Below are positions 18,493 through 59,217 of a DNA stretch of 64,000 bases, piece after piece. The DNA is from Brachycybe producta (Eukaryota > Arthropoda > Diplopoda > Playtdesmida > Andrognathidae). Numbering within the stretch: position 1 is the stretch's first letter; each line of letters begins with the position of its first letter. The position numbers were made by a program, and so were the translations under genes. The notes under the pieces are model-generated. The model made no database searches and was not told where the DNA came from. It was given only the letters and a program-made list of their open reading frames with translations. Location of the stretch: assembly GCA_036925085.1 (NCBI GenBank), contig JAUPFP010000037.1, positions 1,384,001 to 1,448,000 of the forward strand, given 5' to 3'.

Positions 18493-18500
18493 TATAAAAA
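18493..18500 (+). promoter_or_regulatory. TATA box of the proline-rich gene
   Basis: TATAAAAA lies 88 bp upstream of the proposed start codon (18581). Transcription would be expected to start about 30 bp downstream, near 18523, leaving a 5' leader of about 57 nt. The same spacing is found for the gene at 57362. Confidence 0.6.
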
Positions 18501-18580
18501 GCAAAACTTAGTTGCATTTGCAATTGAGAACTGACTTAAATAATATTGGGGGGCTCCAGATGAAAGGTGAATCAACAAAA

Positions 18581-21500
18581 ATGAAGTGTCTGGTAAGTAA
18601 TCATCATCACCACCATAAGTAATGCTAACATGTGTTAGTAATGACTTTCTAACACATGGCTTTTATTCTGTACTTTATACATTTTTTTGTGTGCAATGAA
18701 TGAATTCCAATTTAGTTGAAGGCTGCAAATGCAAATTTAAGAGAAACTTGTGTTTTAGAAACTAGAAAAGTAACTCAATCAATTGTAGCCTCATATTTGA
18801 ATTCGCCACCCCCACACCCTCCTTTCCTGAGGTTTTGAGAAAATTTTAAGTATTTCATGCAAACTGTTTTAACTTTTAAGGAGAAAAATTCTGAAAAATT
18901 CAAAGTGTTTTAGTATTAAACTTTTTATGACAGTTTGAAAAAGGCAAAAAATAGTTTATCATGAAATTTCAACGAAAAACCAAAAAAACGGGTCATTTTC
19001 AAACTGCTATAAAATGTTTATTTTTTAAGATTTTGTCAGGAAAAACTTGCACTATTCTAGTTTAAAAACAAAAAGTTTGCAATGATGTTTTTGTATCCAA
19101 AAACAAGTATATGGAACCATCTTAAGGATAGCTTCATATTGAAATCTTTTAAAATAAGCTTTTTACGTCAGTTTGAAAGTGTCTCAACTTTAAGCAGACG
19201 TTATTCTGAAATTTTTGTTTCTTTTGAAAGATATCAACATGGAAGTAGTATTATGTTATCTAGTTTTTAACACACTTTCAATTTCGTTTTAGTGTTGCTC
19301 ATGAAACAAGAATAATCAGATTTCAAAAATCAGCTGTTCATGTGGTTGTGGTTTGTCAGCGAAATTTTATAAGATTTATTTGAAGAATAGGCCTAAACGA
19401 AGTTTTATGGTTTACTTTCATTACAATATCTTTTAAAATAAACTTTTAATGACAGTTTGTAATGTACATTTTAAATTTTTCATTTATAAAAAAATAATGT
19501 AGTTTGAGACTGTTTTTAGTTTGTAAAAGTTTTCAAAATTTGTTTTTAAAAAGCATTTTCTATAGCTGTGAAAGTGAAGAAGTGTTTAATAAGTTGTATT
19601 TGTAATGACTCATTCAATTGGTTATTTCGTAAACTAATTTGCATATGGTAGAAAGTGAGATTTTTGTTTTATTTATGTTATAGGAAGTGAAACTGTATTA
19701 ATTGTTCCTCTCCAAAACTTGTTGGAAGAATTGCCGAACCTGTTAGTGTGCCACTGACCCACATGCCAACCAATTTGAAAACATTTAACAGGAAGCACCT
19801 GTTCTAATCATTGCATAAGCTCCCCTGTTTAGCTTCAGGCTTAGTTTACAACCAGATAATATGGGATGGGAAACGTAATCGTAGACTTTTGGGGTTTCCA
19901 GTTGGTTTTGCGTCTTTGACCACCATTTTTTTTCCAGGTCTTAATTAAAATATTGTTCTCCATCTCGGAATCTTTTTAAAGTTCATTTAAAACATGAAAT
20001 AGAAGACGTACAGCATATGGCTGCAAGATGCTGTAAAAGGCTGCTGACTGTGTATCAACCATGCTACATGAACTTGAGTGGGAAATGCTGGCATTCTTAG
20101 CCATCCAGGTTCCTAGATGGTAGTTGCAATGTAATGCTATGGAAATATGCAAAACATTTGCACACAAGCCACATGCAGACTTCATGTTGCAGTCAAACTT
20201 GACTGCTAAAAAGTGTGCCAAGGCACTAAAGAGCTAGACCAGTAGAACTGATGCATATTTATGGTTTTTCTTTCCATATGTATTTAGACGTTGGAATTCG
20301 CTTAATGAAGATGGGGTTGAAACAAGCAGTCGCGTGTGTGTTTCAACCCTTAATGCCTTACTAGAGCTCAATGAAAAGAACTGGAAAAATCTTCCAGAAA
20401 AATAAATTTCACAAACAAGCTGTCTATATCAGGGTTTACGTGGTGCACATGCGTTAAAGACACTTTGGATGGGCCTACTAGGTCACATTGTCATCTTGAA
20501 CTTTTGCTATGTTGCATTCGTTTAGATTTTCTATTGGATTTCGGAAGTTTTTATATTATTTCATAGTACTCCACTTTGCCTTTCCGAATCGACAGTTTTC
20601 GGAAGAAAAAACTTGCGAAAGCTATCATTTCTGAAATTCTGAGTGTTTCATTGAGCTCTGGTGAGGCCTTCAGAACGAAATCAATTTGATTATGATTTCT
20701 AAAGTTTGTCTACATGACAATCGTTTATGATTGGGAATTAATTATCTTGCCTATCACGTTGCTCTCGAGCTGATTGACGGCGTACTTAGTTTAATTGAAT
20801 ATTATTGGTGTTATATGGGTTGGAGTCGTTGATAAATTATGACATGTTTTATTTTAAAGAAGGTTTTGTTGTTGTTTTTTTCTTTTCACATTCAGACACT
20901 TTTCCTTTTGTTGTGTGCGAGCGTTTCGTCAATAGCCGCAGACGTAAAAGATGACGATGATCATTTGGTAGCACCGACGGAGAACAGACACGACAAAAGA
21001 AGTGTGGAACTCATTGGTCCTCTTCTCAACAGTCTGTCGTCATCAATGGGAGGAAGCAACGATTACATCGGTAGTATGGGAGGAAATGGTGGGCTCTTAG
21101 GTCTGGTAGGAAACCTCATGAACAATGCCATGGGTGTCACTTTTAGTCGAGAGGGAATCAACATGAACTTGAAGACACCTCCGAGCACAAATAATCAGGA
21201 ATCGCGATCTGGTAATAGCGGTGGTTCTACCGGATTAAATCCGGGAGGTGTTGGTTTAAACTTTGACCTGACCAAGATAGGAAGTAATCTTATCAATGGT
21301 TATCGTGTCGGTAAAGCGGCTGGATCAGCCGGAGGTGGTTTCCTGAGTACTATCTTAAATGGGGTGAATGGTGTTGCTGATAGTCTGTCATTGGGGTCTG
21401 TAACCGATAATAATTTCAATCGGCTTCCTCCACCACCTAGGGTACATCCTCCACCTCAGAATAACCATCCTCCACCTCAGAATAATCATCCTCCCCCTCA

Positions 21501-22647
21501 GGATAACCATCCTCCACCGCAGAATAACCATCCTCCACCTCAGGATAACCATCCTCCACCTCAGGATAACCATCCTCCACCTCAGAATAACCATCCTCCA
21601 CCACCACCTTTTGATGGACCTCATCCTCCACAGCAAAGTAACCTTCCTCCGCATCCTCCACCACCACCTTTCGATGGACCTCATCCTCCACAACCAAATA
21701 ACCTTCCTCCGCATCCTTCACAGCCCAATAATCTCCATCCCCATCCTCCACACCCGAATAATCCACGTCCACCACAACATGGCCCATATCCACCTCCGTC
21801 TCCTCTACAGGGACCATTTTTGCCTCCACCTTCTCCTCAGCAGCTTCCAAATCACGAGAATCATCCGATGCCTCATCAGATTCAACACGAAAACACAGAT
21901 AATTACAGAGGTCCTCCAAGAGACATTGTACACGAACATCCGAATCGTCCTCTAGATCACGACAACTTCCGTGAAGAAGGTCGGCATATGTCATCTGAAA
22001 AGCCAAACGGACATCACGAGAGCAGCAGTAGCAGCGACACCAGCACCACCGAAGAGCCAGACAAGAAATCTACAAGGAGACCTAATAAGAACAAAGGGTC
22101 CAAAGACAATCACAGGGAAGATAATCAGTCTTCATCATCGAGTGCGTCAAGAACGAATTCTAATGAAAAACCAAATGGAAGAATTATAGAGGAGGAACCA
22201 CGTAACAAAAATGTGAACAATAATAACAATTTGAAACATCCTGGAGTACAGTATGTTGATCTTTTACCAGTTCCGCAACCCGCTTTCTTAGCTGATAATG
22301 GCCCAATTGTTGAGAATATTCAGGTGCCACTTAATGTTCAGTTAGTTGATCGCAAGCCTGATTTTATTGTTGCACAAGGTATGCCTCCGCCTGACGCTGT
22401 TCGTAATGGCCGTAGTCACCCGCTTGCTGGTTATGAACCAAGTGGTGAATTTAACGGTTTTAGACAATTGGTTCCTGGTGTTTTTAGAGATGGTTTCTTT
22501 GTAGTTCCACCTGATGGGCCGATTTACGACGGAAGACCTAATGGTGATGTACGTGCCATTTACAGTGGGAACGAGGCTGATAGACACAGCGATGCAATGG
22601 AACGTGGACGTGGACAACAACCTATCAGTTCTTATCTGCCACACTAG
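18581..22647 (+). CDS. Secreted proline-rich low-complexity protein (two exons)
   Basis: Joined exons 18581-18592 and 20896-22647 give about 587 residues. Exon 1 encodes only MKCL before CTG|GTAAGTAA; exon 2 follows the acceptor CACATTCAG and continues TLFLLLCASVSSIA, completing a typical signal peptide cut near residue 18-19. An in-frame ATG at 18560 adds seven residues but has a poor context (C at -3). An acidic propeptide-like stretch (D23-D26) ends in a dibasic KR at 38-39, followed by SVELIGPLLNSL. Residues 122-171 hold a G-rich hydrophobic block containing NGYRVGKAAGSAGGG. Residues 188-236 are seven HPPPQ(N/D)N repeats, followed by two 20-residue HPPPPPFDGP units. Then come His/Glu-rich and Ser/Lys-rich segments and a non-repetitive 130-residue C terminus. 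Probably an extracellular matrix or cuticle-like structural protein. No family domain recognised. Confidence 0.85.
18741..19080. repeat. MITE family C copy in intron
   Basis: Left arm TGTTTTAGAAACTAGAAAAG, then TAACTCAATC; right arm CACTATTCTAGTTTAAAAAC. It contains a CGCCACCCCCACACCCTCC insertion not seen in other copies. Confidence 0.7.
19110..19292. repeat. MITE family C copy in intron
   Basis: The left arm is eroded (CATCTTAAGGATAGCTTCAT, TTGAAATCTTTTAAAATAAG). The right arm is clear (GAAAGATATCAACATGGAAG, ATCTAGTTTTTAACACACTT). AACTTTAAGCAGACG is shared with the copy at 34363. Confidence 0.65.
19980..20235. repeat. MITE family D copy in intron
   Basis: TTGCAATGTAATGCTATGG, AACATTTGCACACAAGC and CAGACTTCATGTTGCAGTC match the element at 3229-3612 (TACAATGTATTGCTATGG, CCTTTGCACACGAGC). 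The right end reads GTGTGCCAAGGCACTAAA. The 81-codon minus-strand frame is not a gene. Confidence 0.65.
21445..21711 (+). repeat. Coding tandem repeats (21 bp x7, 60 bp x2)
   Basis: Seven in-frame 21-bp units encoding HPPPQ(N/D)N occupy 21445-21591. They are followed by two 60-bp units, 21592-21651 and 21652-21711, encoding HPPPPPFDGPHPPQ-type segments. Unit length is a multiple of three throughout, so copy number can change without breaking the frame. Long shadow frames on the opposite strand come from this repeat. Confidence 0.9.
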
Positions 22648-33349: not shown

Positions 33350-36300
33350 ATGAATCAGGTAGGTGAAATAATATTTATTTTCTTAATTTAGATTTAAATT
33401 CAATTTTGTGATAGTTCTATGTGATTATATATGTGTTATGCTAATTAAGAAATAAACAGGTGTTATATAAGTCTAATTGAGTCATTATTACACGGCTTTT
33501 AATATAAAACAGGAAAGTGTTATATAGATGTTAATATTAGTTAAATGTTATATAATTTATATTTCTTAATTTGCCAGAAAAAAAGGTGCAATAATACGTT
33601 ATTTCATAATTGCACTACTATTTAGGAGCATTTATATTATTTTTTAAAATAGTTAGAATTATTTTGAAATAATAGAGCTTTTCCGCCAATCTTTCTTTCA
33701 TTTTGTCGTTGATTTTTTCATTCAACAACAACTTTCTATTTTAGATTTTATATAATCAGAAAAAAATCTAAAAAGCCACCACAAAACCAACTTTTACAAC
33801 AACTTTGGTATTTTTTTTACTGTTATTTGTTGTAAAATAAACGTTTTAACAAATTTATGGTGGCACAAAACCTCTATTATTTCATAATAAGACAATTGAC
33901 TAATTTTACTCTTTTTAAAATTACTTCAACTAATTGTTTTAATATAAATAATACAATAGTTGTGTTGGTATAGTTGGGTGGATCTGTTTTATTTTAAATA
34001 AATAAAAAAGAGAGTAAACGCAAATTTAGGCTAAGTGGCAAAAGTGGTTTAGTAAAAATTCAGTCATTCTAATAATACCTAGTACACACCTAATAAATTA
34101 AATGCATTTAAATAATAAACACGTTTTACAAAACCCTTTTAAGGACTAGAAACATACATTGAATTCAATACATTTTAATATATTCAGTCGTTGCATTTTA
34201 ATATAATGAGTTATTGTAATAAAATTTTCATTAAGCTTATTTAAAAATGTACAGATACTAATTAAAGTAAGGAAGTAAATTTCAAGTTAAGATGGTTTTA
34301 AAATGTAAATGCCTCTCAAACTCTTGATTATTCATTCAGTCTTTCACGTTCAAAATTAAGAGAAGTTTGAATGTGTTTTATAAACTAGAAGGGTAACTCC
34401 ATCACTTAAGGGTATTTTAATGTGGATAATCTTTCAAAGACTCAACTTTAAGCAGACGACGCTTAGCAGAGTATATTTTTTTCATTTTTGTCTATAAAAA
34501 GGTTTATTTTGAATGATATCAATGTGAAAATACCCTTGAGTGTGTTCGAGCTACCCTTCTAGTTTCTAAAACACTTCCTAGTTTCTATTACTTTTGCTTC
34601 TGAAAGATAGAATAAAAATTCGAAAATTAATTGTTCCTAAACCATCTTAATTGGACTCCGAAATATTCAACTAAACACAATTAATTGGAATGCATTTAGT
34701 TAATGTGAAAACAAGTTATTATAAAGTCACATTTCTAAAAAAAAATAGCTTAGTAATCTATTTATTATTTTTGTATGAAAAAATAATTTTTTTTTTTGCT
34801 TTAAAACTATTTAGAAAATTCTAATTTTGTTTTTGTTTATGTTTATTTGAGACATAATTATTATTTTAAGTGTATTTTGCATAAAACATGTTTTTATGAT
34901 GAAAATTTTTCAACAATACAAATAGAGAGGGGTGTTTTTTTTTTCTTTTCTTTTTCTCTAAATTACTTATTTTTCATTTTTATATTGTTTTAAAAGTTAT
35001 TTTTTTTTCTTATTATTATTATGTTGTTTTCATTTATTATCCACATAGGAAGTGAAAACTAAATACAAAAAACTAAAGAAATGTCAAGACTATAAAAAAA
35101 AAGCTAAAAACAAGTGATTGTTGTCCTAAATCCCCATCACATTCATTTTGCTTTGTGAAGTTTTGGGCAACTTTCACTTGTGTGTGTGTTTTTTTTAAAT
35201 AAAAAACCAGCTTTCTTGTAATATAAATCATGTTACCTGATGATGTCACTCAAGCATTTATGTTACATGTTAGGGGCCAATCAGGAAGTGTATTTTTTTA
35301 CTTCTTCTTCTCCTGTTTAAAATATAATTATGGTTATCTATCTAGTTATGAACATTAGAAATAGAAAGTGGAATGAATCAATGTAATATGAAAAGAAAAA
35401 ACAACAAAACAAATGACCACTCCTATGGAGAGAAAGTTATCAACCAAAAAATGAAACAATATAATATAAAAAAAGGTTTTTTGTTTTAATACAAAGTTGA
35501 CCTGAAAGTAAAAGTTTTACCATCCATTTTTTTTTTTGGAATGTGGAATGCAATTAAAATTAAAATTTAAATGAAATTGTACATTGAATCAAAACATTAA
35601 AATTGCAAGGATTATACCTAGTAATTAATACATCTAATAAGATAAATGCATTTCAATATTGAATATATTATACAGAACTCCTGTTATGTCTACACTTTAG
35701 CTAAATCCATTTAATACCTAGTACACACCTGTTAGTTTAAATGCATTTAAATAATACACGTGTTCTACAGAGCCCTGTTGAAGGATAAACAAACAATATG
35801 TCGAATTCAATTTATTCAGTAATCTGAAAATATTGAGTTAATACTTAAATATAATATAGAAACTATTGACAAAATATTGATTTAGTATTTCAATTTAAAA
35901 TATTATTAATTTTTATTTGGTTCGTGTCCTTAACTGGATTCCGTACAATTCACCTAAACACATTTAATTTGAATTCATGTACAAGGAACAAGTTAAATGT
36001 GTTTAATTGTATTATACGAAGTTCAATTAAGAACATGGACAAAATAAATGAACTTAATAGATATGAAGAAAATTTGAATACTAAGTCAATATTTCGCACT
36101 AACCTATTATATTAAAATGAAAATTTGAATATTTAAATATTGACTCAAAATATAGAGATATTAATTGAATAAATTAAATTAGACATTGTTTGTCTTTGAC
36201 AGGGCTCTCTAGAACATGTTTAAGATTTAAACACATTTAACTTTTTTTTAAGTTAGTTGAATCAAATATTGATTTAATAATTCAATACATAGTTCAAATA

Positions 36301-37337: not shown

Positions 37338-40097
37338 ATTTAAACTGGTCAAGAGGAAAAATACATGGAAACAAAAATGCATTCACAAAGATCCTGGTAC
37401 AACATTTTATTTCTAATGTATAAAAATATAAATCATAAATGCAATCATCGAGTGTAGGTTGTATTATTGCAATATATAGGAAATAATACGAGTCTTCTTT
37501 ACGAATGTATGTCACACATAAACACATTACATCCTTGTGTATCAAAACAGGAGAAATTATCTAGAAATGTAGATCAGTTAAGAAGTAACTTTTAGCAGGA
37601 TATTATAATTCATCAATATAATAATAAATTTTATTTTATTTAAAAAAATGAGTTCAAAATGTAGGTAAGAAGTAATCAATAAATAAAATGTACTTGTTGC
37701 ATTATTTCCTTATTACTTATAATATTAATTAATGAAAAGTTTCTATCTGGTATCAATTATTAATATCAGTTTCGTAGCTATGGAAAACAATTGGAGCAGT
37801 TTGCTCCAGGCGCCAATTTGCAAAATGGCGCCTTCAAATCTCGTTTTAATTTTTAATATTTTATTTCCAAGTTTTCTGATTAATAATTAACAGGGCTACG
37901 ATTATTATGCAATATCTAATGAATGTTTCTCAATTTGTGGCCCAAGCGCCAATTGTGAAGTAATCATCAGCATTTAGATGATCTGCTTTATCTAATCAAA
38001 AAGGTCTGGTTAGAGGCTAGATGTCTGATTACTATTAGTTGTCTACTAGAGTTCTAGCCTCTAACCAGTGTTTTTGATTGTAACAAACATAATTGCTGGT
38101 TGATCTAAACAGGGTTATTACTTCACAATTGGCCCTTGGGCCACAGATTGAGAAACATTCATTAGATATTGCATAAAAATCTGAGCCCAAATGTATAATT
38201 AATAATTTTATATTAATTAGTAAGGCAACCGGTCTTTCTCTAAAGTCAGAGAGAAGAAATTCATATTTGTCATGATTAATTTAATTAATATTTATTTTAT
38301 CTGTAACTATAGGTAATAATCTTCTTGACAGTATTGCTGTCAAGTACAGCATTTGTGACATATGCTCAAGATGCTCCAACGACCATCACCATCACCACTA
38401 CAACTCCACCACCACCACCAACAACAATAGCTGCAGCAACAGCAGCACCACAGTCAACGACTGCAATACCATCAACAACAACACCTGTGCCAATTACAAC
38501 CGCAGCAACAGTAACGACATCAGTCACCACACCTCAACCACCATCGACTACGTCGGCAACGCCAAGCACCACCACGACAGCATCAGAACCTTTGATACTA
38601 AATGGTGAAGATAGCTCACTGTATGGACTTTATGGTGATTATGGCTATCCCAGTCTTGTAGGATATGGACCTGAATATGTACCAGATACTGATGTTCGCA
38701 TTGAGACAGGCGTAGATGGTGAAGGCACCAATCAGAAAAGATCGCTTGGGAATATCCTCGGTATGCTCGTTGAAGGAGGCGGTGGTATGGACACGAGCTA
38801 TGGAACAAATAATCATTATGGAGATGCAGGTGCTGATAGGAGCGGAGGAGGTGGCTCCTATGGTGGCAGTGGTGGTGGTGGTGGCTCTTATGGTGGTGGC
38901 AGCTCTTATGGTGGTGACAGCTCTTATGGATCAGGCTATGGACAGGCCAGTTATGCTAAGGGTCTCGGTTATAACGCTGGCTACAATGTAGGAGAATCGA
39001 TGTCTACTGGATTCGATTTGGGAAGATTGATCCGTTTGGTTGGATCTGGACTTCGTAACGTGCAAACCTTGAAGTCGACTCTTTTCCGTGCATTGAGCAG
39101 TGCGGGAGCTACGTTTGGAGCATTAGGAGGAGGTGGTGGCAGTGCCAGTTATGACTCTGGTTCTGGTTATGGTTCTGGTTACAGTTCTGGAAGTTATGGA
39201 GGCGGAGGTGGTGGTGGTGGAGGTAGTGGATTTAGTTTGAAATCTTTTGGCCTCGGTCTGGGTTTGGGTGCTGTGAAAGGTGCCATCATCGGAAAGAAGA
39301 TTGGAATTATCAAGGGTTTAATTCTGGCCAGATTAAAGCAAGCACTTATGAGTAGTCAGATGAGTCAAAGTTATCAGAGTGGTTATTCAGGATATGCTAA
39401 TCAAGGCAGCAACTATGGTGGATACGACAACAGTGGCTACGGACAGGGAAGTTCGTATGGAACTGAATACAGAACTGGTTCTGGAGATTCTTACTATGGT
39501 GATGACCAGTACAAGGGAGATGCTGGAGACGCAAACGGTTATGGTAGTGCTTCGTACGGCACATCTGGTACCAGCAGTGGCGGTTACAGTGGAGGAGGCA
39601 GTGGCGGTTACAGTGGAGGAGGCAGTGGCGGTTACAGTGGAGGAGGCAGTGGCGGTTACAGTGGAGGAGGCGGTGGCACATCATCGGGAACCGGCAGTGG
39701 AACGAGTGCTGGTAGCTATGGGGGTTCGTATGATATGGATAGATCTTATAATGGTGGAATCTATGCTCAACCGGAAGGCTCTCCTTCTACTAGTTTTGGG
39801 GGCTTTGGAGTTGGGGCTGTTCTAGGTGCTCTCAATGGATACAAAACAGGAATTACCAAAGGGCTGTTATACAGTGATATTTATGGAGTGGGCAGTCAGT
39901 CATATGGCAGCAACCGTCGTCCAATCTTTGGTCCAGACGTATATGCTGGCGACACTATTAAAGGAAAATCAGGTACAAGAAGTGGGGGTTCTGTCTTTAG
40001 GCGCCCTGGCAATCCTGCAAGCTACGGTTTTTCAAATTCCAACATGCCAACAGCAGAAACAGCACTTAATGCCTTAGTAATGGGAGTAGCATCTTAA
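33350..40097 (+). CDS. Secreted Thr-rich and Gly/Tyr/Ser-rich protein (two exons)
   Basis: Joined exons 33350-33358 and 38313-40097 give about 597 residues. Exon 1 encodes only MNQ before CAG|GTAGGTGA; exon 2 follows TAACTATAG and continues VIIFLTVLLSSTAFVTYA, completing a signal peptide cut near residue 21. Residues 24-95 are Thr/Pro/Ala-rich and mucin-like, so probably O-glycosylated. A dibasic KR lies at 145-146 (NQKR|SLGNILG), as in the gene at 18581. After it, Gly-Tyr-Ser spacers (GGGGSYGG, four 8-residue GGYSGGGS units) alternate with three hydrophobic/basic blocks: about 219-274 (GFDLGRLIRLVGSGL), 310-352 (GAIIGKKIGIIKGLILARL) and 497-531 (NGYKTGITKGLL). No chitin-binding R&R consensus is seen. 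Likely an extracellular structural protein of cuticle, silk or glue type. Tyrosines could support cross-linking (inference). Confidence 0.87.
34363..34590. repeat. MITE family C copy in intron
   Basis: Left arm ATGTGTTTTATAAACTAGAA, then GGGTAACTCCATCACTTAAG; right arm GAGCTACCCTTCTAGTTTCT. One of the better preserved copies, including ACTTTAAGCAGACGACGC in the middle. Confidence 0.85.
35716..36243. repeat. MITE family H copy (ACCTAGTACACACC)
   Basis: The left part ACCTAGTACACACCTGTTAG, TTTAAATGCATTTAAATAAT and GTTCTACAGAGCCCTGTTGA is inverted on the right as TTGACAGGGCTCTCTAGAAC and TTAAACACATTTAAC. Partial copies lie at 34080-34180 and 56247-56530. A 63-codon frame inside is an artefact. 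Confidence 0.75.
37280..37331. repeat. (TA)n microsatellite
   Basis: About 25 uninterrupted TA units, likely length-variable. Confidence 0.95.
37891..38190. repeat. MITE family B copy in intron
   Basis: The left end CAGGGCTACGATTATTATGC is inverted at the right as GCATAAAAATCTGAGCCC. The inner arms TTCTCAATTTGTGGCCCAAG and GGGCCACAGATTGAGAAACA pair almost perfectly. It ends about 120 bp before exon 2 of the host gene. Confidence 0.85.
39576..39671 (+). repeat. Coding 24-bp tandem repeat, four copies
   Basis: Four nearly identical in-frame units beginning AGTGGCGGTTACAGTGGAGG encode the GGYSGGGS-type repeat. Near identity of the copies points to recent expansion or homogenisation. Confidence 0.9.
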
Positions 40098-43032: not shown

Positions 43033-43265
43033 ATTGAAAATGTGCTAGAAACTAGAAGGATATAGCTGTACCACTTAATAATATTTTCATGTTGATAACT
43101 TTCAAAATAAACTTTTTATAGACAAAACTTAAAAAAAATATCATTCGCTCAAAGTTGGATCATTTTCAATCTGACATAAAAAGCTTATTTTTAAAAATGT
43201 CAACATAAAATTACCCTTAATGGTTGAGCTACTCTTCCAGTTTCTAAAACACTTGCAAGTTTGTC
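43033..43265. repeat. MITE family C copy
   Basis: Left arm AATGTGCTAGAAACTAGAAG; right arm GAGCTACTCTTCCAGTTTCT. Inside, TTGATAACTTTCAAAATAAAC faces AGCTTATTTTTAAAAATGTC. Confidence 0.85.
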
Positions 43266-44700
43266 TCTTTTGATGTTAGGTCCTATACATGATAACATAC
43301 CAAGTTGAAAATAGGTCGTTGGTTTCTCTCAGATTAAACTTTATTGTTATATAAGGTACACTTTATGATAAAAATGTGAAAATTCAATGATATTATCAAA
43401 ACTGTCATATATAAACGCCTTAAATATAAAATAATGCCTTTCTTTAAAAGAAAAAAAAAGAAGCCTGACCCATTTATTTTGTTTTGACTTTATAATTCAT
43501 AATGCTAACTTAGCATGGGGCATTATTGGGGCTGTGGTTCACCAAGTAAAGTTTAGCTACTTTTTCTGTTCTTTTAAAGAACAAAGAAACCTTATAATGT
43601 ACCTGTAATAACCATCATATATGGTAAAAAAAAGTATACATTTATGTTGGGTATTTTAAACTCTGCTGAAATTTATACCATTTTACTACTTACATTTAGT
43701 ATTTTGAAATGGAAATTAACTTAGAGTTCTCTTTCAGGTATTGTGGCCATCTTTGGTTCAAAATCGAGGAATGTTTAGATCTAATCCTTTTTTTTTAAAT
43801 GTTGTTGACCTCTGTTTTTATTTTAACTATATGTCCTTTTAAGATAGCCCTACAGCAACCTACTTAATCTACATTGTTACCAGTATTTTTGCATAATTTA
43901 TTTTTATATGTCTTGTTTTCATTTAGGTAATTTCTAAGCACTTTGTGGTGTAGTAAAATATTTTTTTTTGCCTTTTGGAAATATTTTTAAGTATAATTTG
44001 ATGTTTCTTCATTGTGTGGATTTTAAGATTTATTTATGGTTTTAATAGTTATTTTTTGTTAAATTTCTTTACACTTTAAATTGTCTTGAGGTAATTCTGA
44101 GATTACTTAGGTTAGGTGTTATATCGTACAGTATAATAATTCTATCTAGCCAACTCATGCACATGCATCTTCTCATACTTATAAAATAATTATTATTATA
44201 ATTAAATCATAATTATAATAATAATTATCATATGTTTATGAAATTAACTTACCAATTATTTTAATCAGATTTATTTATATTGTTATTTTCTTCTCAAAAA
44301 GGTCTGATTATTATATTATTTGAAAAGATGCCTTTTTACTTTTGTTTTAATAATTTATTTAAATAATTATTAATTTTAACAATAATTTTAATTATTAAAA
44401 AATACCTCTGTGTACGAGCGTATTGAAATATATGACCAGTTTATTCACGTCTGATTTTTTAAATTTTAATCATTATTAATTTTAATAATAATTTTAGTTA
44501 TGAAAAGACTACACCTCTGTAAAATTACCAATTTATTCACTGGTCTGATGATACATTGCATAAAGTCAAACAAAGCACTTTATTGTTATACATATAAACT
44601 CAAAAAACTGTTCTCTGATTAGTTAGTTAATTACCAATCCAATTTTAAAATATTCCAATGAATAAGATGACGAAATGATAGAAAATGAGAAATATTTATG
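43266..44700. other. AT-rich intergenic
   Basis: No gene. An AT-rich segment with repeated AATTATTA/TAATAATT motifs at about 44200-44510 shows two weakly similar units, each followed by ACCTCTGT. Confidence 0.4.
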
Positions 44701-45034
44701 GCTCGGATTTTTATTGATTGATGTTTTTTGATTGATTTCAAGCAAATGTTTCTCAATGTGTGGCCCAAGTGCCAATTGTGAAGTAATCATCATCTGCATT
44801 ATATTAACTGCAATTATGGCTTTTGCTAATCACAAAGGCTGGTTGGAGGCTAGATGTCTGATTACTATCAGTTGTCAACTAGAGTTCTAGCCTCTTAACT
44901 AGTGTTTTTGATTAAAAAAACAATTGTTGGTTAATATATATGGGATTGTTACTTGACACTAAAGTCAATAATTGGCCCTTGGGCCACTGATTGAAAAACA
45001 TTTGCTTGATATATTGCATAGAAACTCAAGCTAT
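44701..45034. repeat. MITE family B copy
   Basis: Left GCTCGGATTTTTATTGATTG; right GCATAGAAACTCAAGCTATA (eroded). The inner arms GTGGCCCAAGTGCCAATTGT and AATTGGCCCTTGGGCCAC pair well. Confidence 0.8.
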
Positions 45035-46118
45035 AAATAATTCATTTGAAACAAAGGCAGTAAGATAACTTAGTATGTTATAAATTGTACAATTAATTTG
45101 GATGGCTAGTCACCTGTAATTTCTAACTACTCGACAGATTTTTTTTTAGTAAAATTACTTTCCTGTACTTTTATTCTTTTTTGATGAAAATACGAGTTCT
45201 AACTTAATAGCTTTGATAACTATTAATTAGATTATTAGTGATATATACTGATAATTAGATTAATGACAAGTTGACAGATACTCGAGGAAATGTTTTGAAT
45301 ATACAGTAATCACGTCAATTGATTTTTTTTAGTTAACAATGTTATGATTCACTTGTCAGTGACACAGTGTAATGCCTTCAGCCTTAAGGCACACATAAAT
45401 ACAGTATATGATTAATTTCTATCAAGACATTTGAGAGATCATGAGATCTAATTTAATTCAAGTAAATTTAATCAATATTGACAGTGTTATTTTAAATGGG
45501 AAATGAACATGTAATAACACACAATATAGAAAGCCACTACTAGATTTTTATGGTTAATAGACATCGTTGATCTAGTTTTAAATTTTATATTAAAATACAT
45601 TTTTATATTGTTACGATATCAATCTTGACCATATCAAAATTGAACATATAATGAAGAAGAAAAAAAAATAATGACCAACATAAAAGAAAAACCACAATCA
45701 TAAAATGTCTACCACTTCCTCAAATTGACATGTTTTTTTTTATTTTTTTTAACTAGTTTACAAGAAAAAAAGCTGAAAATTATGAATTAGGTTAAAACAA
45801 GTTTTTTTTTGTATTAAGTGTTTTAATATTTTGAAAGTGTTTCCGGAAATAATTACAATGAAATATTTGGTTAATATAGTTTAATTCTTGCATTTATTTT
45901 TACTGTTTAACCCACCTAAAAGCCCAGTTGAAACAATGTGAAGTTTTTTTTTACTAATTAGTTAAAATGAATAAGAATAATGTTTTCTGCTGTTTCTCTA
46001 TTTCTTTCTCTCTTTCTCTTATGTTTATCTATTTTTCTCAGCCTATTTCTGAACTAATTTTTAGAAATGGATTTTCCTAAGATAGGTAAAATACTTTTGA
46101 GTACTAATGATTAATTAC
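45035..46118. other. AT-rich intergenic
   Basis: No gene, RNA gene or clear repeat was recognised. Confidence 0.4.
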
Positions 46119-46386
46119 TAGAGCTCGGATTTTTATGCAATATCAAGCAAATGTTTCTCACTGAGTGACCCAAGAGCCAATTGTAAAGTAACTTGTTTAG
46201 ATCAACCAATAATTATGGTTTTTTCAATCCAAAACAATAGTTAGATACTAGAACTCTATTAGATAACTGATAGTAACCAGACATCTAGCTTTTAAATAGC
46301 TTTTTTTATTTGAAAAAGCATAATTGCAGTTGTTTAACTTGTGCTCTCATGATTTGCTAAAATATTGTATAAAAATCCGAGTCCTA
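46119..46386. mobile_element. MITE family B copy with 8-bp target duplication
   Basis: It starts TAGAGCTCGGATTTTTATGC and ends AAAAATCCGAGTCCTA. TTAATTAC flanks it on both sides (46111-46118 and 46387-46394). The 8-bp duplication and TAGRGCTCGG ends place the family with hAT elements. Confidence 0.88.
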
Positions 46387-48860
46387 TTAATTACCCACAG
46401 ATGTGGCATAAAAATAATATAAAAGTTGACAGTTGGTATACATTTGATTGGTCATACAAAAAGGTATGAAATTAAAAAATTAAGAGTAAAAAAGATGTAA
46501 AATTAAAAAAAAACTTTACCATTGGGCCTCCGACTATGATATACAATTGATATTAAGGCCTGCATTCAATAAGGAAACTTGGCATTTGAAATTCAATTTG
46601 AACCTTTTGAGCAAGTTTCAAACATGGAAAACCCCTTTTGTAAGGTTGGTAAAGTCCAGACCAGAACTGAAAATCCTTCCTAAAATTCAAAAATAAAACT
46701 TGACATAAAAATGGTAGCATTCTTAATGATTTTTAAGTCAAAGCAAGTGCTAAAGCTTATAAACTTTTAGATAGGTATAGTTTCATGTAAATGTTTATGA
46801 GCGTAGAACTAACTTTGACTTAGCAATCATTAAAATAGTGATTGTTAATGTCACGTTTTCTTCACATTTCACAATTGTGTCAAGTTTTCTTTTTAATTTT
46901 AGAGTAACTACTTTCAGTTCTGGCCAATTAATTAAGGACTTTGAACTTAAAATACACAAGAAAATTCTGATTTAGAAGGCATAAAAGCTGGACTCAATGA
47001 CATTGAAATATGGAACAGACCAAATTTATTTTAATTTGATGTAATGAAATTATTCATTAGTATTTATATTTTAATTAATGCTAATTAGGATCTTACTCTG
47101 GATCTATTATATATTGTTTTTAATATTGAATTCTTTTATTAAATAAGGTGAATGATATGCAAAAATGATGTTGCATTGTCTAAAATATGGACACATTTTT
47201 ACATATAGTGGGTGTATATGATTTTGAGTTATTATGAATATAAAATGAGGAAGCTTTTATATATGTCTAGTTGCCAAGACAAAAGTTGACCGAATAATGT
47301 TTCAATTCTAATATAGGCTAACCTCATATTCCTACATGTATATTTTACGAGATACTTCATTAGTTGTTTTGAGATGATATAGGAATACACACATAGTAAT
47401 TTATTAAGACAAGAAAGATGACAACAACAAAAATAATAAATTCAGGTCAGAAAAAAAAGTTGGAAAAATGTTGACTTTTTCATTATTTTTGCATAAAAAT
47501 TAGGTTATATGAAGTTTTTTGTTCATATTTGGAATTGACTAGATTGTAACTAAATAACCTTTAAACTTTTTGTTAAATACATTTTTACGCAATGCCCTGT
47601 TTCTACTTGACGAAATTTATTAAACTGTGGAAATGTGAACTGGAGAAAAATGGTAGTTTACTGTGGTAAAGTTACCTAACGCATTTTCATTAGTTGGACA
47701 ATAATAATGACACTATTAGGAGAAAAGGAATTTGATATGACAGCACAAACGTGGCTAGCCTATTAACTATAATGGTTTGATTTATTATGTTAGGTCAATT
47801 GAAATGAGAAAACCCCTATGGCCCTACCACTTTCTCATAAATTATTACCATTTCTCTTAAATATTTACATTGAAATGGTGTTGTTTTGAGGTAAAGGTGT
47901 AGATAAATCTAACCTAGATCTAATTAAAATGCATCACATTACCTGAAATGATAAATAATTATTTGAAGAAAATGCTAAAATAGAATCATCCTCAGAAGTT
48001 GAAAACAAATTCAACTATTGGATGTGCAAAAACAACGAAAAACTTTAAACCATACCGGTATTTGAGCTAATCTGCATGAAAACATGTTTTCAAATTTCTG
48101 GTTGCAATTAATTTTTGATTTCGATCATTTATGCTTTTACCAGCTTAAAAAGCATTTCCACCCACATTTTCGTCAAGTGGAAACAGGGCCTTGTTAAGAT
48201 ATGGTAATAATTAAACTTTCCATTATTTTTTCTGGAGGGAAAATATACTTTATACACTAATATTTAAGTCCAGTGAACCATTTCTGTGTAAAGAAAAGAT
48301 ATTATTAATTTTTTTTTACATTAATGACAATTTAAACAAAAAAATTTAATCAACTAAGAGGTTTAGGGCTAAGTAAGGCTTAAAAATAATTTTGAATATT
48401 TTTTTTTACATGTGTTGCATCTATATTAAATAGATCTAACATTTATGCCAGTAGCTCTCTTATTATTAGTATGCATTTTTTTTCGAGGGTAAACAAACTT
48501 GAGATGAAATGAATTTCATTATTCTTAACAAAAAAATTTCAGAAACAATTTTTTTTTAAAAATTCGTGGTCCCTTCAACACTTCAAAAGTACCGATAGTA
48601 GCAAACTACTGTATCACAAATGTATATTTTAACATAGGCCTATGTACTTTTAAATGTTATTGCTAGTCTATGGTATATATTTTAAAAACATTAGGGGGCA
48701 TGTTTTCATTTTTTTTGCTATTATATTTATTATAGTGTATAACATGGTCAGATGAGTTTAAATTACATTGTAACTTTAGTTCTAGGTTCTTTTTATTTCA
48801 ATTTTAATTTAGTTTGATATTTTTGAATTTTTTGATCACACAATATTGTCATATCATTTG
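46387..48860. other. AT-rich intergenic
   Basis: No gene is supported. A possible hairpin pair GGCCTGCATTCAATAAGG / related motifs was not convincing. GCCCTGTTTCTACTTGACGA (about 47593) is inverted at 48171-48192 (TCGTCAAGTGGAAACAGGGC), which suggests a roughly 600-bp element with CAGGG-type ends. Confidence 0.45.
47593..48192. mobile_element. Probable 600-bp element with GCCCTGTTTC ends
   Basis: GCCCTGTTTCTACTTGACGA near 47593 and its near-perfect inverse TCGTCAAGTGGAAACAGGGC near 48171-48190 face each other. Next inward, ACTTTTTGTTAAATAC is outside, while AGCATTTCCACCCACATTTT lies just inside the right end. The ends point inward in the GCCCTG...CAGGGC sense, so either the element lies between them or these are the adjoining ends of two elements. 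No frame of note inside. Confidence 0.45.
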
Positions 48861-49159
48861 TAAGGCTCGGATTTTTATGAAATATCAAACAAATGTTTCT
48901 CAATTTATGGCCCAAGTGCCAAATGTGAAGTAATCATCATCATTAAAGCAACTGCAATTATGTTTTTTTTTTCTAATCAAAAAAGCTTGTTATAGTCTAG
49001 ATGTCTGGTTACTATCAGTTGCCAACTACATTTCTAGTCTCTAACCAGTGTTTTTTCATTGAAAAAAACATAATTGTTGGTTTATCTAAACGAGATTGTT
49101 ACTTCACAACTGGCTCTTTGGCCACAAAGAGGCGATATTGCATAAAAATCCGAGCCCTA
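48861..49159. mobile_element. MITE family B copy with 8-bp target duplication
   Basis: It starts TAAGGCTCGGATTTTTATGA and ends CATAAAAATCCGAGCCCTA. ATCATTTG flanks it on both sides (48853-48860 and 49160-49167). The best preserved copy of the family, 299 bp. Confidence 0.9.
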
Positions 49160-50726: not shown

Positions 50727-50881
50727 GGAAAATCATGGCAGCAGAACAAAAAACAATTGCTTCCAAACTAGTTGTATTTGCAGCATTTATTTAGTATGTT
50801 GGTGTTTGCTGTTATTAATTTATATTAAGTGCCCATATATTCCTACTATAAAAGAAGGAAAGACATAAGATACACATCATC

Positions 50882-53114
50882 ATGAAGCTAACTGTAAGTA
50901 CATAACTGTTTGATTATGGTTTTAATGAATGTGCAATTTGAATTTGAATTTTTTTTAAAATTATACTGCAAGCAACCAAAAGACCTATTGCAGAGAGACA
51001 AAATTTCAATTGCAGTATGCGAAATGTATTGTCACAACCCCAAAATATAAACAATTGCAGTGCGTTCTGGTAAAGCTAAAATAATTGCATTGTCAGAAAA
51101 TTAAGACACGTTTTACGTTTCACGTTTTTCACATCAGTTATGTAAATGTTTGTGGCACATTTGTGCCACAAACATTTACATAACTGATGTGAAATTTTTA
51201 GGAACAACTTTAAGGTGCTTTTAGAGTATAAACACCTTTCGAACTCTGGTGATTCTGTTTTCGAGCAGAAAAATGAAGAGAAACTTTGAAAATGTTTTGG
51301 AACCTACAAGGATATAGCTCAATCACTTAAGGGTATTTTCATGTTGATGTAAGTTTATGACAATTTTAAAAGGATTCAGTTTTAATCACAAGAATATTTT
51401 TTTTTCATTTTTATCAACTTTTTTCTTTATTTTGAAAGATATATCAACATGAAAATACTATTAAGTGATTCAGCTATCATTCTAGTTTCTAACACACTTT
51501 CAATTTCTCCTTTGTGTTTGTTGCCTATGAAACGCATAATAAGTAAAATTTAAAAATCACCTGTTTATATATAAAACATCTTCAAGAAAAAATATAAAAA
51601 TTTGTTAGAAACTAGAATGGTATTTAAAAATGCTAAAAGTGTTTTCTAGATGGACATCATTTTTTTAACGAAACAGTGTGTGGTATAAAAAATATCATCA
51701 AATTGTTTTGAAATTAACATGTGGAGTTCATTTTACTATTCCAGTTTTTAACAAATTGCCATTCTTTTCTGTTGAAAAAAAGTTTGCTTTCACTTTATGT
51801 ACTTCAAAGAGTTCTTTCTAAAGTGAACAGTCTATCATAGTTAGTAATTATGAGTTGTTTTGATGTATATAATTTTATAAATTATATGTTATTTATGGTA
51901 TAACACGTGTATTTCTATTTAAGGTTCTTTTTGTGTTGGTCAGTTTGTTTACCCTGACATCAACAAAGAAAAAAGATAAGGAGGACTTTAAAGGAATCAC
52001 AATTTCTCTGAAGGGACCACCATTGCCGTTTCTTCTTCAAAACATTGGTGGTTCAATGTTGCAAGGACTACAAGGAGGTGGTGGGTTCAATCCTTATGAT
52101 GCACAAAGTCGGTCGGACTTTGGAAGATCAGGTGGTTATGGTGGTGGCTATGGAGGTGGCGGATATGGAGGAGGTGGATACGGAGGAGGTGGATACGGAG
52201 GAGGCGGTTACGGAGGTGGTGGTTATGGAGGAGGCGGTTACGGAGGTGGTGGTTACGGAGGAGGCGGTTACGGAGGAGGTGGATACGGAGGTGGTTACAA
52301 TAGCTATTTTGGCAATCCAAAGAAAACTGGCTACCACCTTGGATTGGGACTCGGAGCACTTAAGGGACTTGCCATTGGAGCTGGATCTACTGCTTTAGCT
52401 GCAAAAACACGTGCAGCAAATTATGGTGGTGGATATGGTGGAGGATATGGTGGAGGATATGGTGGTGGCTATGGTGGTGGCTATGGTGGAGGTTATAATG
52501 CAAGAAGTGGTGGTGGATATGGTGGTGGTGATTATGGTGGTTACAATTATATTCCAAGATTTAGTATTCATGATGGACTGTTGATGCTAAGAGGTCTTCT
52601 TGCTGGCAATAGAGAAGCTAAACTTGATGGTTTTGCAGTGGGAAAGAAGCTGGGAGTTTTACAGACACAACTTTTACAAAGAGGTGGTGGTATTTTGAAT
52701 GGTTTATTGCAAGCAAGTATAGCTGGAATGGGAAGTTATAATGGTGGAGGTTATGGTGGTGGCGGTGGTTATGGTGGAGGCGGTGGTTATGGTGGAGGTG
52801 GTGGCTATGGTGGTGGTGGCTATGGTGGAAATAGTTATGGAGGTGGTGATAGTTATGGAGGTGGTGGTCACTCCAGAGGAGACCATGGTATAAATAGTTA
52901 TGAAGGTGGTGGTGGTTACTCTAGAGGTGACAATGGTGATAATATAAATTATGAAGGCCATGGTCATTTTAATGGACCTCAAGTGTACGGAAATCATTTC
53001 GGAAATAATGCTCGTGCTGATTACAGCAGTGGTGAAAATATTCAAAGTATTGATACAAATCATCTTATATTTCCTACACATTTGGTTCAATATAATGGTA
53101 ATAACAATGATTAA
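50882..53114 (+). CDS. Secreted GGYGG-repeat glycine-rich protein (two exons)
   Basis: Joined exons 50882-50893 and 51924-53114 give 400 residues. Exon 1 encodes MKLT before ACT|GTAAGTAC; exon 2 follows TTTCTATTTAAG and completes the signal peptide MKLTVLFVLVSLFTLTST, cut near residue 17-18. A lysine-rich KKKDKED segment follows. Three GGYGG-type arrays (about 74-129, 168-205 and 278-320; unit GGGGY) are separated by two non-repetitive blocks: about 130-167 (TGYHLGLGLGALKGLAIGAG) and 214-277 (DGFAVGKKLGVLQTQLLQRG). These blocks resemble those of the protein at 33350. The C-terminal 80 residues are Asn/Gly/His-rich. GGYGG arrays are typical of arthropod glycine-rich cuticular proteins, keratin-like silk and glue proteins. 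No R&R chitin-binding motif. AATAAA at 53277-53282 is a likely poly-A signal. Confidence 0.9.
51127..51194. repeat. Perfect 33-bp inverted repeat with 2-nt spacer
   Basis: The left arm 51127-51159 starts TTTCACATCAGTTATG; the right arm 51162-51194 is its exact reverse complement; the spacer is TT. It lies in the intron of the GGYGG gene and would form a 33-bp RNA hairpin if transcribed. The two-base loop is too small for a canonical microRNA precursor. Confidence 0.95.
51282..51508. repeat. MITE family C copy in intron
   Basis: Left arm AATGTTTTGGAACCTACAAG, then TAGCTCAATCACTTAAGGG; right arm CAGCTATCATTCTAGTTTCT. Confidence 0.8.
51604..51765. repeat. Short family C-like hairpin in intron
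   Basis: GTTAGAAACTAGAATGGTAT at the left and TACTATTCCAGTTTTTAAC at the right are inverted. A similar size and organisation to the element at 40175-40335, so these may form a short subfamily. Confidence 0.65.
52128..52298 (+). repeat. Coding GGYGG array (15-bp unit)
   Basis: About eleven 15-bp units such as GGAGGAGGTGGATAC. Related arrays in the same gene are at about 52423-52500 and 52741-52870. Shadow frames on both strands across here come from the repeat. Confidence 0.9.
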
Positions 53115-53282: not shown

Positions 53283-53299
53283 TTTATGTTTATTGTGAT

Positions 53300-54399: not shown

Positions 54400-54592
54400 A
54401 TAGATCGAATTTTATCCAAATATAAAGTAATTGTTTCTTAATCAGTGATTCAAGTGCCAATTATGTTGCCAATCATCCTTCAATTTAAACATTTTTAAGT
54501 CTATTGTTTAGATAGACATTTGTGACACTTTAGCCATAGACTTAAGTTGAAAAATATTTGCTTGAAAGTGGATAAAAAGTCAATCCCTAATT
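54400..54592. repeat. Decayed family B copy
   Basis: ATTTTATCCAAATATAAAGT, GTTTCTTAATCAGTGATTCA and AGTGCCAATTATG at the left, and AAAAATATTTGCTTGAAAGT then AAAAAGTCAATCCCTAAT at the right, follow the family B layout with heavy divergence. It abuts the better copy at 54597. Confidence 0.6.
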
Positions 54593-54596
54593 ATTA

Positions 54597-54885
54597 AAGC
54601 TCGGATTTTTATGCAGCATCAAGTAAATGTTTCTGAATTTGTGGTACCCGTACCAATCATCATTAGAGCATTGTGCTTTTTCTAATCAAAAAGACTGGTT
54701 AGAGGCTGGAAGTCTGGTTGCTATCAGTTGTGAACTAGAGTTCTAGCCTCTAATCAGTGTTTTTGAATTTAAAAAACCGATAATTATTGGTTGATCTAAA
54801 TGGCATTGTTACATACACAATTTGCTCTTGTGTCATTGATTGAGAAACATTTCCTTGATATTGCCTAAAAATCCGAGCCCTAATA
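54597..54885. repeat. MITE family B copy
   Basis: Left TAAAGCTCGGATTTTTATGC; right CCTAAAAATCCGAGCCCTA. Together with 54400-54592 it forms a tandem or nested pair. A 63-codon minus-strand frame across it is an artefact. Confidence 0.85.
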
Positions 54886-56207: not shown

Positions 56208-56246
56208 TCTATTCTTGCAGTTGCACACCATTGACAGACACTTATA

Positions 56247-57273: not shown

Positions 57274-57284
57274 GTATAAATATA
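57274..57284 (+). promoter_or_regulatory. TATA box of the small secreted protein gene
   Basis: TATAAATATAA lies 88 bp upstream of the start codon (57362). With initiation about 30 bp downstream the leader would be about 57 nt, the same as for the gene at 18581. Confidence 0.65.
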
Positions 57285-57361
57285 AGCTCATCTCTAGCTT
57301 ATTTTTCAATATCTCACATTTTGTGGTGTCATCATCTCAGGAGATACATATATATTCAACA

Positions 57362-59050
57362 ATGAAGGTAAAACAATATTTCATTATAAGCAATGATGAT
57401 ACTTAAGGTGATTTTAAAAATGTAAACTACAACTGAACTAACTATTGGGTTATTTTGTATTTCAGGAACAAAATTTTAGAGAAACATTTTTTTGAAAAAA
57501 AAAAATTAGAAACTGGAAGGGTAACTGAATCTCTTAAGAAAATTTTTATGTTGGTATCTTTTAAATTAAGCTTTATATTAAGCTCGAAATATCAGCTACC
57601 TTAAAAGTTGAATCATTTTCTCAAGTAACATAATACTAATGAGAAAATGACTCAACTTTTAGCAGATGATATTCTTACTTGTTTTCTATAAAAAAAAAAG
57701 TTTATTTTGAAAGATATCAATATAAAAATGCTATTAAGTGATTTGGCTACCGTTCTAGTTTCTAACAATTTCAATTTTTTTTCAGTATGGTTTTCTAAAA
57801 CTTGGTTGTGTTTTAGGGTAGCTCTATCACTTAAATATAATTTCATGTTGATATCTTTTAAAATAAGCTTTTTATGTCAGTTTTACATAATAATGGCCCA
57901 ATTTGTAGCATACGATATTTTTTTAATTTTTGTTCATAAGAAAGGTTAATTTAGAAAGATATCAACATGAAAATGCTATTATAAGTGACTCAGATACCGT
58001 TCTAGTTTCTAACATACTTTCAGTTTATACTCTATGCTTTTCGAAAAACTCGAGTATTTTAGAAACTACTGTACATAGGACCAATAATAACTCTATTCTT
58101 AATTTCATGTTGAATTTTTTTTTAAAAAAATAAGCCTTTTATGTAATTTTGGAAATGGTGATTCAGATACCATTCTAGTTTCTAACACGATGTCAATTTC
58201 TACCATCTATGCTTTTCGAAAAAAACTTGGAAAGTGAGTGTTTTATAAACTAAACCAATGACTCCAGCACTAATTTCATGTTGATATCTTTTAAAATAAG
58301 CTTTTTCTGTTAGTTGGAAAAATACTCAATTGTGAATATACGCTATTGTTTTAATTTTTGTTGATGAAAATTTTACTTTGAAAGATAGCAATTATGAAAA
58401 TACTATTAAATGATTCAGCTAATATTCTAATTTATAACACAATTGCAATTTTTTTTAGTATATTATACAATATATTGCTCCTGAAATGTTAGATTCTAGA
58501 ATAACCAAGAGTTTGGTAAATCAACATAAATTCATATTTTTTGGTTTATGATTTTTTAATGCAGTTTTCTAATTAACATTTTTTCATTATTATTATTTTA
58601 TAGTCTCTTTTGAGTTTCATCTTGTGTTTTGCAATATTTTCTTCATTGTCCATCAGAGCAGTTCCAATGCCACTGATGGACACTTCCCACGTGTTGGTTC
58701 CACCCATTGGAACTTATTTAGAAAGTCACTTTAACAATGCAGTGACCACCACTTCTACTCAATTTCCACCCCTAAAATCACATCACAGACAACCAAGAGC
58801 CGTCAATTTAGGACGACTGAGGCAATTGGTCAACAATGTGGCTCTCAGTGAGTTCTATCGAATTCGAGGCCTCGAAGTGATGGACTCACTTGGGGTTAAT
58901 TACGACCAGGAAACATCGGCTTCAACTAATTCCAATACAAATTCGACTCCAAATTTAACTGTACTTCAGAGTCGAATTTTAAATAGATTAAGAGATGCTT
59001 ATAGACGTGATAAAACGATGCAAAATATTTTCACTTATTTGCAAGATTAA
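57362..59050 (+). CDS. Small secreted basic protein (two exons)
   Basis: Joined exons 57362-57367 and 58604-59050 give 150 residues. Exon 1 encodes only MK before AAG|GTAAAA; exon 2 follows TATTTTATAG and continues SLLSFILCFAIFSSLSIRA, completing a signal peptide cut near residue 21. The following segment, VPMPLMDTSHVLVPPIGTYL, is not repetitive. At 64-67 lies RQPR, an RxxR site of furin type, then AVNLGRLRQLVNNVALSEFY. A Ser/Thr/Asn-rich linker (about 106-118, with a possible N-glycosylation site NLT at 119) leads to a basic, probably helical C terminus (LQSRILNRLRDAYRRDKTMQ). No cysteine lies beyond the signal peptide. It is not recognised as a known family: it could be a propeptide-type secreted factor or a partner of the structural proteins upstream. 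AATAAA at 59212-59217 is a likely poly-A signal. Confidence 0.82.
57368..58603 (+). other. First intron of the small secreted gene, built of family C repeats
   Basis: A 1236-bp phase-0 intron from GTAAAACA to TATTTTATAG. Most of it is made of about four consecutive family C units (about 57500-57785, 57800-58025, 58040-58200 and 58225-58450), each with a GAAACT-type left arm and a TTCTAGTTTCTAAC right arm. Three short open frames inside are repeat artefacts. Confidence 0.75.
57500..58450. repeat. Cluster of about four family C units
   Basis: TTCTAGTTTCTAACA or close variants recur at about 57753, 58000, 58172 and 58424 (ATTCTAATTTATAACAC). Each is preceded by GAAAGATATCAA-type segments and followed by a new left arm such as GTTTTATAAACTAAACCAATG. 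Divergence between units is substantial, so the cluster is old. Confidence 0.75.
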
Positions 59051-59211
59051 CATAAGATTTTAATTAATTAAGAAAATGAAAAAGAACAGAAATTGAAACA
59101 CATTTTTAATTGTTTTTCTTTGTAGTTTCTTTAATAATTGAAATCAAACACTGTACAATTTTTGTATATAAACTTGTGTATTTATTTTTATACGATTTCT
59201 GTAAAATGTAA

Positions 59212-59217
59212 AATAAA
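59212..59217 (+). terminator. Poly-A signal of the small secreted gene
   Basis: AATAAA 162 bp after the stop codon, nearly the same distance as in the gene at 50882. Confidence 0.65.

What the first reader, a model, noticed from the sequence alone, without database searches (positions are those of the whole stretch)
18493..59217. Cluster of four secreted-protein genes with one shared, hidden gene plan
All four genes lie on the + strand and have a TATA box, a first coding exon of only 2-4 codons (MKCL, MNQ, MKLT, MK), a phase-0 intron inside the signal peptide, and one large second exon. Leader and 3' UTR lengths also match between members (about 57 nt leaders for two; poly-A signals 162-163 bp after the stop for two). 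This fits descent from a common ancestor or a shared mode of gene birth, in which a promoter and signal-peptide cassette is joined to fast-changing repeat sequence. Open-frame searches alone would misplace every start.
Basis: partly seen in the sequence, partly recalled or inferred. Interest (0 to 1): 0.75.

Follow-up and report, generated by a model that had tools for sequence, protein, structure and literature searches.

The report
Four ordinary insect cuticle-type genes
Four neighbouring genes, probably from an insect, appear to share a tiny first coding exon and one large second exon; this layout is already well documented for insect cuticle genes, so the cluster looks like a new example of a known kind, not a new way of making genes.

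Summary
The four gene models hold up as sequence. Joined at the stated junctions, each gives one open phase-0 frame (587, 597, 400 and 150 aa) with a hydrophobic N-terminus. For genes 1-3 the proposed exon-1 donor is the best-scoring candidate in the preceding 7 kb; for gene 4, 12 other donors score as well or better. Splicing was not shown. The extra matches are weak: gene 1 has an earlier in-frame ATG that breaks the 57-nt leader match, and only genes 3 and 4 share the poly-A distance. The plan is published: Anopheles CPR cuticle genes mostly have first coding exons of 3-36 nt (mode 12) splitting the signal peptide, with TATA and AATAAA (PMC2259329); Drosophila shows a matching phase-0 peak that survives homology reduction (PMC1626468). 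Genes 2 and 3 share a glycine/hydrophobic module and are probably paralogues; genes 1 and 4 are not demonstrably related. No promoter, intron-edge, signal-coding or 3'UTR pair is below 1% of random pairs, so a moved cassette is not supported. Best reading: clustered, secreted, cysteine-free cuticle-type structural protein genes.

The parts
18581..18592 (+). gene 1, proposed first coding exon MKCL (alternative in-frame start 18560, MKGESTKMKCL)
   Evidence: A at -3, donor CTG|GTAAGT score 7.5, best of 59 candidates in 7 kb
20896..22647 (+). gene 1, exon 2: rest of signal peptide, KR site, HPPPQ[ND]N repeats, C-terminal region; protein 587 aa
   Evidence: acceptor TTTTCACATTCAG| score 5.3, open frame; alternative in-frame acceptor 20860 scores 0.1
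33350..33358 (+). gene 2, proposed first coding exon MNQ
   Evidence: donor CAG|GTAGGT score 7.6, best of 54 candidates in 7 kb
38313..40097 (+). gene 2, exon 2: T/P-rich stretch, KR site, GSY-rich repeats, helical modules; protein 597 aa
   Evidence: acceptor ..ACTATAG| score 1.1, open frame with no upstream Met
39246..39335 (+). gene 2, glycine/hydrophobic module copy 1
   Evidence: alignment with copy 2 and gene 3; helix in a single-sequence AlphaFold2 model
39795..39881 (+). gene 2, module copy 2
   Evidence: z about 6 against copy 1, 0 of 300 shuffles of either kind
50882..50893 (+). gene 3, proposed first coding exon MKLT
   Evidence: donor ACT|GTAAGT score 2.4, best of 65 candidates in 7 kb
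51924..53114 (+). gene 3, exon 2: GGYGG repeats (22 overlapping) and two module-like stretches; protein 400 aa
   Evidence: acceptor ATTTAAG| score -0.7, open frame
52332..52415 (+). gene 3, stretch like the gene 2 module
   Evidence: z about 4 against gene 2 module copy 1; 0 of 300 full shuffles, 1 of 300 local shuffles
52626..52715 (+). gene 3, second module-like stretch
   Evidence: z 4.2 (full) and 5.7 (local) against the gene 2 copy 2 segment, 0 of 300 each; against the copy 1 segment only 1% and 9%
57362..57367 (+). gene 4, proposed first coding exon MK (uncertain; alternative donor 57407, MILK/MMILK)
   Evidence: donor AAG|GTAAAA score 1.6; 12 other donors in 7 kb score as well or better, 57407 scores 4.1
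58604..59050 (+). gene 4, exon 2; protein 150 aa, not repetitive
   Evidence: acceptor ATTTTATAG| score 2.1, open frame with no Met before the hydrophobic stretch

Best explanation
Four neighbouring genes for secreted structural proteins, most likely cuticle-type, built on the usual insect cuticle-gene plan: a TATA promoter, a short first exon ending a few codons into the signal peptide, a phase-0 intron, and one large exon. Proposed working: the spliced mRNA is translated into the secretory path, the signal peptide is removed, genes 1, 2 and 4 may be cut further at basic sites (HDKR, NQKR, RQPR), and the cysteine-free chains (Gly/Tyr-rich in genes 2 and 3, Pro/Asn/His-rich in gene 1) assemble outside the cell. 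In genes 2 and 3 hydrophobic helical modules would act as stickers between flexible Gly/Tyr spacers, with tyrosines available for cross-linking. Genes 2 and 3 are probably paralogues; genes 1 and 4 share the plan and the place but not demonstrable sequence. Shown: frames, splice-site sequences, composition and the gene 2/3 module. Inferred: splicing, secretion, cleavage, cuticle location, cross-linking and insect origin.
For: Phase-0 open models; proposed donors rank first in 7 kb for genes 1-3. No cysteine or tryptophan after residue 20 in 4 of 4 proteins; glycine 25% and 38%, tyrosine 8% and 11% in genes 2 and 3; 22 GGYGG in gene 3. PMC3766229 (passages) gives abundant glycine, GGYGG/GGY motifs, a signal peptide and no cysteine in the mature protein as features that may mark cuticle proteins. 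Gene plan: PMC2259329 (passages), PMC1626468 (abstract and passages), PMC2793513 (passages). Gene 2/3 module; two predicted helices in gene 2, part of one with pLDDT near 90, in a single-sequence model of mean pLDDT 65.7 and pTM 0.28.
Against: No Pfam or NCBIfam match above threshold for any of the four; PDB was searched only with gene 4 exon 2 and the N-terminal part of gene 1 exon 2, without a relative. No RNA data; organism unknown. Gene 4 has no cuticle-like composition, its ORF length alone is within chance and its donor is not the best nearby. Gene 3's acceptor is poor. Intron positions are 5, 4, 5 and 3 in the numbering of PMC1626468, so only genes 1 and 3 sit on its position-5 peak. 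Gly-rich secreted proteins also occur in silk and tick cement (listing and passages).
Confidence: 0.7

Rival explanations
1. The genes encode products of a secretory gland (silk, salivary sheath or cement) and not of the epidermis, with a similar two-exon plan.
For: Silk and eggshell genes have a related plan: FibH has two exons with a 39-45 bp exon 1 (PMC11241164, passages) and silkmoth chorion genes have a minor exon 1 of about 50 nt (PMC4639761, passages). Gly/Ser/Tyr-rich repeats would fit silk or cement as well.
Against: First coding exons of 6-12 nt lie in the 3-36 nt range of Anopheles CPR genes and not at the 39-50 nt of those genes.
Confidence: 0.2
2. The four genes were made by one promoter/signal-peptide cassette being joined to different sequences.
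For: Same strand, phase and plan; TATA-like boxes 83-88 nt before the ATG in 3 of 4 genes, 0.00045 for four random ATGs but about 4% for three ATGs that each have a box; the 13-nt motif AGTTGYATTTGCA occurs only at 18510 and 50770, near the starts of genes 1 and 3.
Against: 0 of 30 comparisons of upstream, intron-edge, signal-coding and 3'UTR DNA are below 1% of random window pairs; the lowest are 2.1% and 3.4%. The alignment holding the motif is reached by 8% of random pairs. The plan is common among cuticle genes that are not alike in sequence.
Confidence: 0.05
3. Not exclusive of the best explanation: one or more first exons are wrong (gene 4 above all); the real starts lie elsewhere, though the second exons are real.
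For: 12 other donors equal or beat gene 4's, among them 57407 between the proposed donor and the acceptor; gene 1 has an earlier in-frame ATG and an alternative in-frame acceptor at 20860; gene 3's acceptor is poor.
Against: Proposed donors rank first in 7 kb for genes 1-3; the joints give hydrophobic signal-like starts, with lysine after Met in three of four. The donor at 57407 would leave the first ATG at 57362 out of frame (read).
Confidence: 0.35

Closest known systems
CPR cuticular protein genes (Anopheles gambiae, Drosophila)
   Same: Short first coding exon (3-36 nt, mode 12; here 12, 9, 12, 6) splitting the signal peptide; 55% have two exons, 82% TATAAA, 84% AATAAA within 500 nt; many lie in clusters (PMC2259329)
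   Different: No R&R (Pfam PF00379) match and none to a loose pattern of my own
CPG glycine-rich cuticular proteins
   Same: GGYGG and GGxGG repeats in gene 3, GGxGG in gene 2
   Different: Assigned by homology to Bombyx members and described as found only in Lepidoptera so far (PMC10138643, passages); genes 1 and 4 lack these repeats apart from one GGxGG in gene 1; whether CPG proteins carry the helical module was not tested
Fibroin heavy chain
   Same: Two exons, the second long and repetitive, intron inside the signal peptide (PMC11241164, passages)
   Different: FibH exon 1 is 39-45 bp and exon 2 is 7-29 kb; here 6-12 nt and 0.4-1.8 kb

Membership tests
Insect cuticle-type gene plan | Short first coding exon (3-36 nt) with an intron inside the signal peptide | tested here: met
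   12, 9, 12 and 6 nt, phase 0, as sequence models only, gene 4 uncertain; range from PMC2259329
Insect cuticle-type gene plan | TATA box and poly-A signal | tested here: inconclusive
   TATA-like boxes upstream of 4 of 4, but 28% of random points have one in the scanned span; AATAAA within 500 nt in 3 of 4
CPR | R&R consensus (Pfam PF00379) | tested here: not met
   No match for 4 of 4 proteins with the limit at E 10, though filters drop most matches above 0.1; loose pattern also none
CPG | Multiple GGYGG or GGxGG repeats | tested here: inconclusive
   Met for gene 3 (22 and 25) and for GGxGG in gene 2 (12); not for genes 1 (0 and 1) and 4 (0 and 0)
CPG | Homology to Bombyx CPG proteins | not testable with these tools
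   No insect protein collection on hand
Fibroin heavy chain | Exon 1 of 39-45 bp and exon 2 of 7-29 kb | tested here: not met
   6-12 nt and 0.4-1.8 kb
Secreted structural protein | Expression and location in cuticle or secretion | not testable with these tools
   No RNA or protein data

The most novel reading that the evidence does not exclude
The cluster is a small nursery of an undescribed insect structural-protein family, in which hydrophobic helical stickers alternate with Gly/Tyr spacers (genes 2 and 3) and neighbours with different cores (genes 1 and 4) took over the same ancient 5' exon, now diverged beyond recognition.
Probability: 0.07. Interest if true: 0.55.

Novelty: new member of a known kind. 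Interest (0 to 1): 0.2.

Why it matters
It shows four genes that plain ORF finding would start in the wrong place, and two carry a Gly/hydrophobic module that Pfam and NCBIfam did not match. The gene plan itself is well known and tells little about gene birth.

Tried and rejected
Family searches: Pfam gave only sub-threshold rows (Chi-conotoxin E 0.12 over the first 35 residues of gene 1, COPI_C E 0.24 on gene 4, none for genes 2 and 3); NCBIfam none for four exon-2 products; PDB none for gene 4 exon 2, and two rows read as noise for the first 180 residues of gene 1 exon 2 (E 0.024 and 0.53). Rfam and tRNA scans of the window found nothing. Relatives were sought in viral contigs with gene 3 only and in prokaryote genome contigs with gene 4 only; none was confirmed. 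A search of held papers for three module strings and one long GGYGG string found 0 papers.

Homology of genes 1 or 4 to the others: best z 2.9, 2.8, 2.6 and 2.4, reached by 1.7-2.7% of full and 2.3-5% of local shuffles, among 55 pairs of segments that I cut by eye; not accepted. Shared promoter or cassette: not supported. Neighbouring genes: 79 of the 150 frames of 60 aa or more listed were scanned against Pfam; the other 71, many of them over the four genes, were not. 11 families matched one frame each, best E 0.0033, read as noise. Gene 4 structure: mean pLDDT 47.3, not used. Gene 2 residues 231-358: used only for the presence of two helices; no fold search was made.

Full report
What was checked. 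The window is 64,000 bases with no N, about 30% G+C. No whole genome is held for it, no tRNA or Rfam family was found, and the organism was not identified. The insect reading is an inference from protein composition, gene plan and a CCTAA-like array at 10433-10504; that TTAGG is the common insect telomere motif is recalled.

The gene models. Donors read CTG|GTAAGT, CAG|GTAGGT, ACT|GTAAGT and AAG|GTAAAA; acceptors end TTCAG, TATAG, TTAAG and TATAG. On a rough matrix written from recall the donors score 7.5, 7.6, 2.4 and 1.6. Four mini-exon candidates, at three donors, reach 7 on the + strand and none on the - strand; two of the donors are those of genes 1 and 2, the third is MFIR at 12493-12504, unexplained. 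Within the 7 kb before each acceptor the proposed donor ranks first for genes 1, 2 and 3 (of 59, 54 and 65 candidates), while 12 other donors equal or beat gene 4's (169 candidates), among them 57407 with 4.1. Gene 1 has an in-frame ATG at 18560 as well as 18581, so its first exon may be 11 codons, and a second in-frame acceptor at 20860 that scores 0.1 against 5.3. A scan of both strands with cut-offs set after seeing the genes gave 6 hits, of which 4 fall on genes 1 (twice), 2 and 4; gene 3 was missed because its acceptor scores -0.7.

Chance. Exon-2 frames of 583, 594 and 396 codons far exceed simulated windows (largest 185 in 40); gene 4's 148 codons do not, with 7 such frames in 40 windows. 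TATA-like boxes occur in the scanned span at 28% of random points. Boxes 83-88 nt before the ATG in genes 1, 2 and 4 would be rare for random ATGs (0.00045) but about 4% for ATGs that each have a box; this fits real promoters with short leaders but says little about kinship. The 162/163-nt poly-A match of genes 3 and 4 has about a 1% chance for some pair of four random points and was chosen after the fact; genes 1 and 2 do not share it.

What the proteins look like. None of the four has cysteine or tryptophan after residue 20. Gene 1 carries HPPPQ[ND]N repeats, gene 2 GSY-rich repeats, gene 3 22 overlapping GGYGG; gene 4 is not repetitive. Genes 1, 2 and 4 have a KR or RxxR site beginning between residues 38 and 145; gene 3 has none. 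With repeat stretches cut away by eye, genes 2 and 3 share a glycine/hydrophobic module (z about 4, and about 6 between the two copies in gene 2). One further gene 2/3 pair that looked good against full shuffles (1%) fell to 9% against local ones. A single-sequence model of gene 2 residues 231-358 predicts two helices, the second over module copy 1.

What is known. In Anopheles, 86% of CPR genes with introns split the signal peptide, giving first exons of 3-36 nt with median and mode 12; 55% have two exons, 82% have TATAAA and 84% have AATAAA within 500 nt, and the authors note that this trait is an obstacle to annotation and not unique to CPR genes (PMC2259329, passages). In Drosophila, a phase-0 peak at position 5 of signal-peptide genes holds 88 proteins: 38 cuticle constituents, 46 without known function, 4 others; the peak remains in a homology-reduced arthropod set of 20, and two Tenebrio cuticle genes have such introns at positions 4 and 5 (PMC1626468, abstract and passages). 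In that numbering the four genes here are at 5, 4, 5 and 3. [quoted passage not shown] So the shared plan is the usual one for insect cuticle-type genes and needs no special mode of gene birth.

Cassette test. Pairs of 300-nt upstream regions, intron ends, 75-nt signal-coding starts and 3'UTRs were compared with random window pairs: 0 of 30 fell below 1%; the lowest were 2.1% (genes 3 and 4, intron 3' ends) and 3.4% (genes 1 and 4, intron 5' ends). Dispersed repeats lie in these introns and may account for those two; the alignments were not inspected. The best upstream similarity over 209 nt, 19 columns between genes 1 and 3, is reached by 8% of random pairs.

Verdict. A cluster of four plausible secreted structural-protein genes on a well-known plan, two of them probable paralogues. 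Splicing, expression, location and organism remain untested.

Noticed in passing
7775-10922: About 3.1 kb bounded by long inverted repeats (249 nt at 97% and 176 nt at 91%), with a CCTAA-rich array at 10433-10504 beside one arm; looks like a foldback or terminal-inverted-repeat element.
   Followed up: partly
37883-38204, also 4448-4673, 44706-44921, 46111-46319, 48853-49128, 54587-54777: Dispersed repeat family, some copies with inverted arms; one copy ends about 110 nt before gene 2's acceptor.
   Followed up: no
57531-58468 and 51451-51646, also 4152-4367, 14258-14457, 19119-19183, 43063-43278: Another dispersed repeat family (TTCTAGTTTCTAA / TTTCATGTTGATATCTTT) present in the introns of genes 1, 3 and 4, densest in gene 4's.
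   Followed up: no
12493-12504: Mini-exon candidate MFIR with the best donor score of the window (8.1); no partner exon was looked for.
   Followed up: no
18510-18522 and 50770-50782: The 13-nt motif AGTTGYATTTGCA occurs only twice in the window, both upstream of exon 1 of genes 1 and 3; the alignment is not significant.
   Followed up: partly
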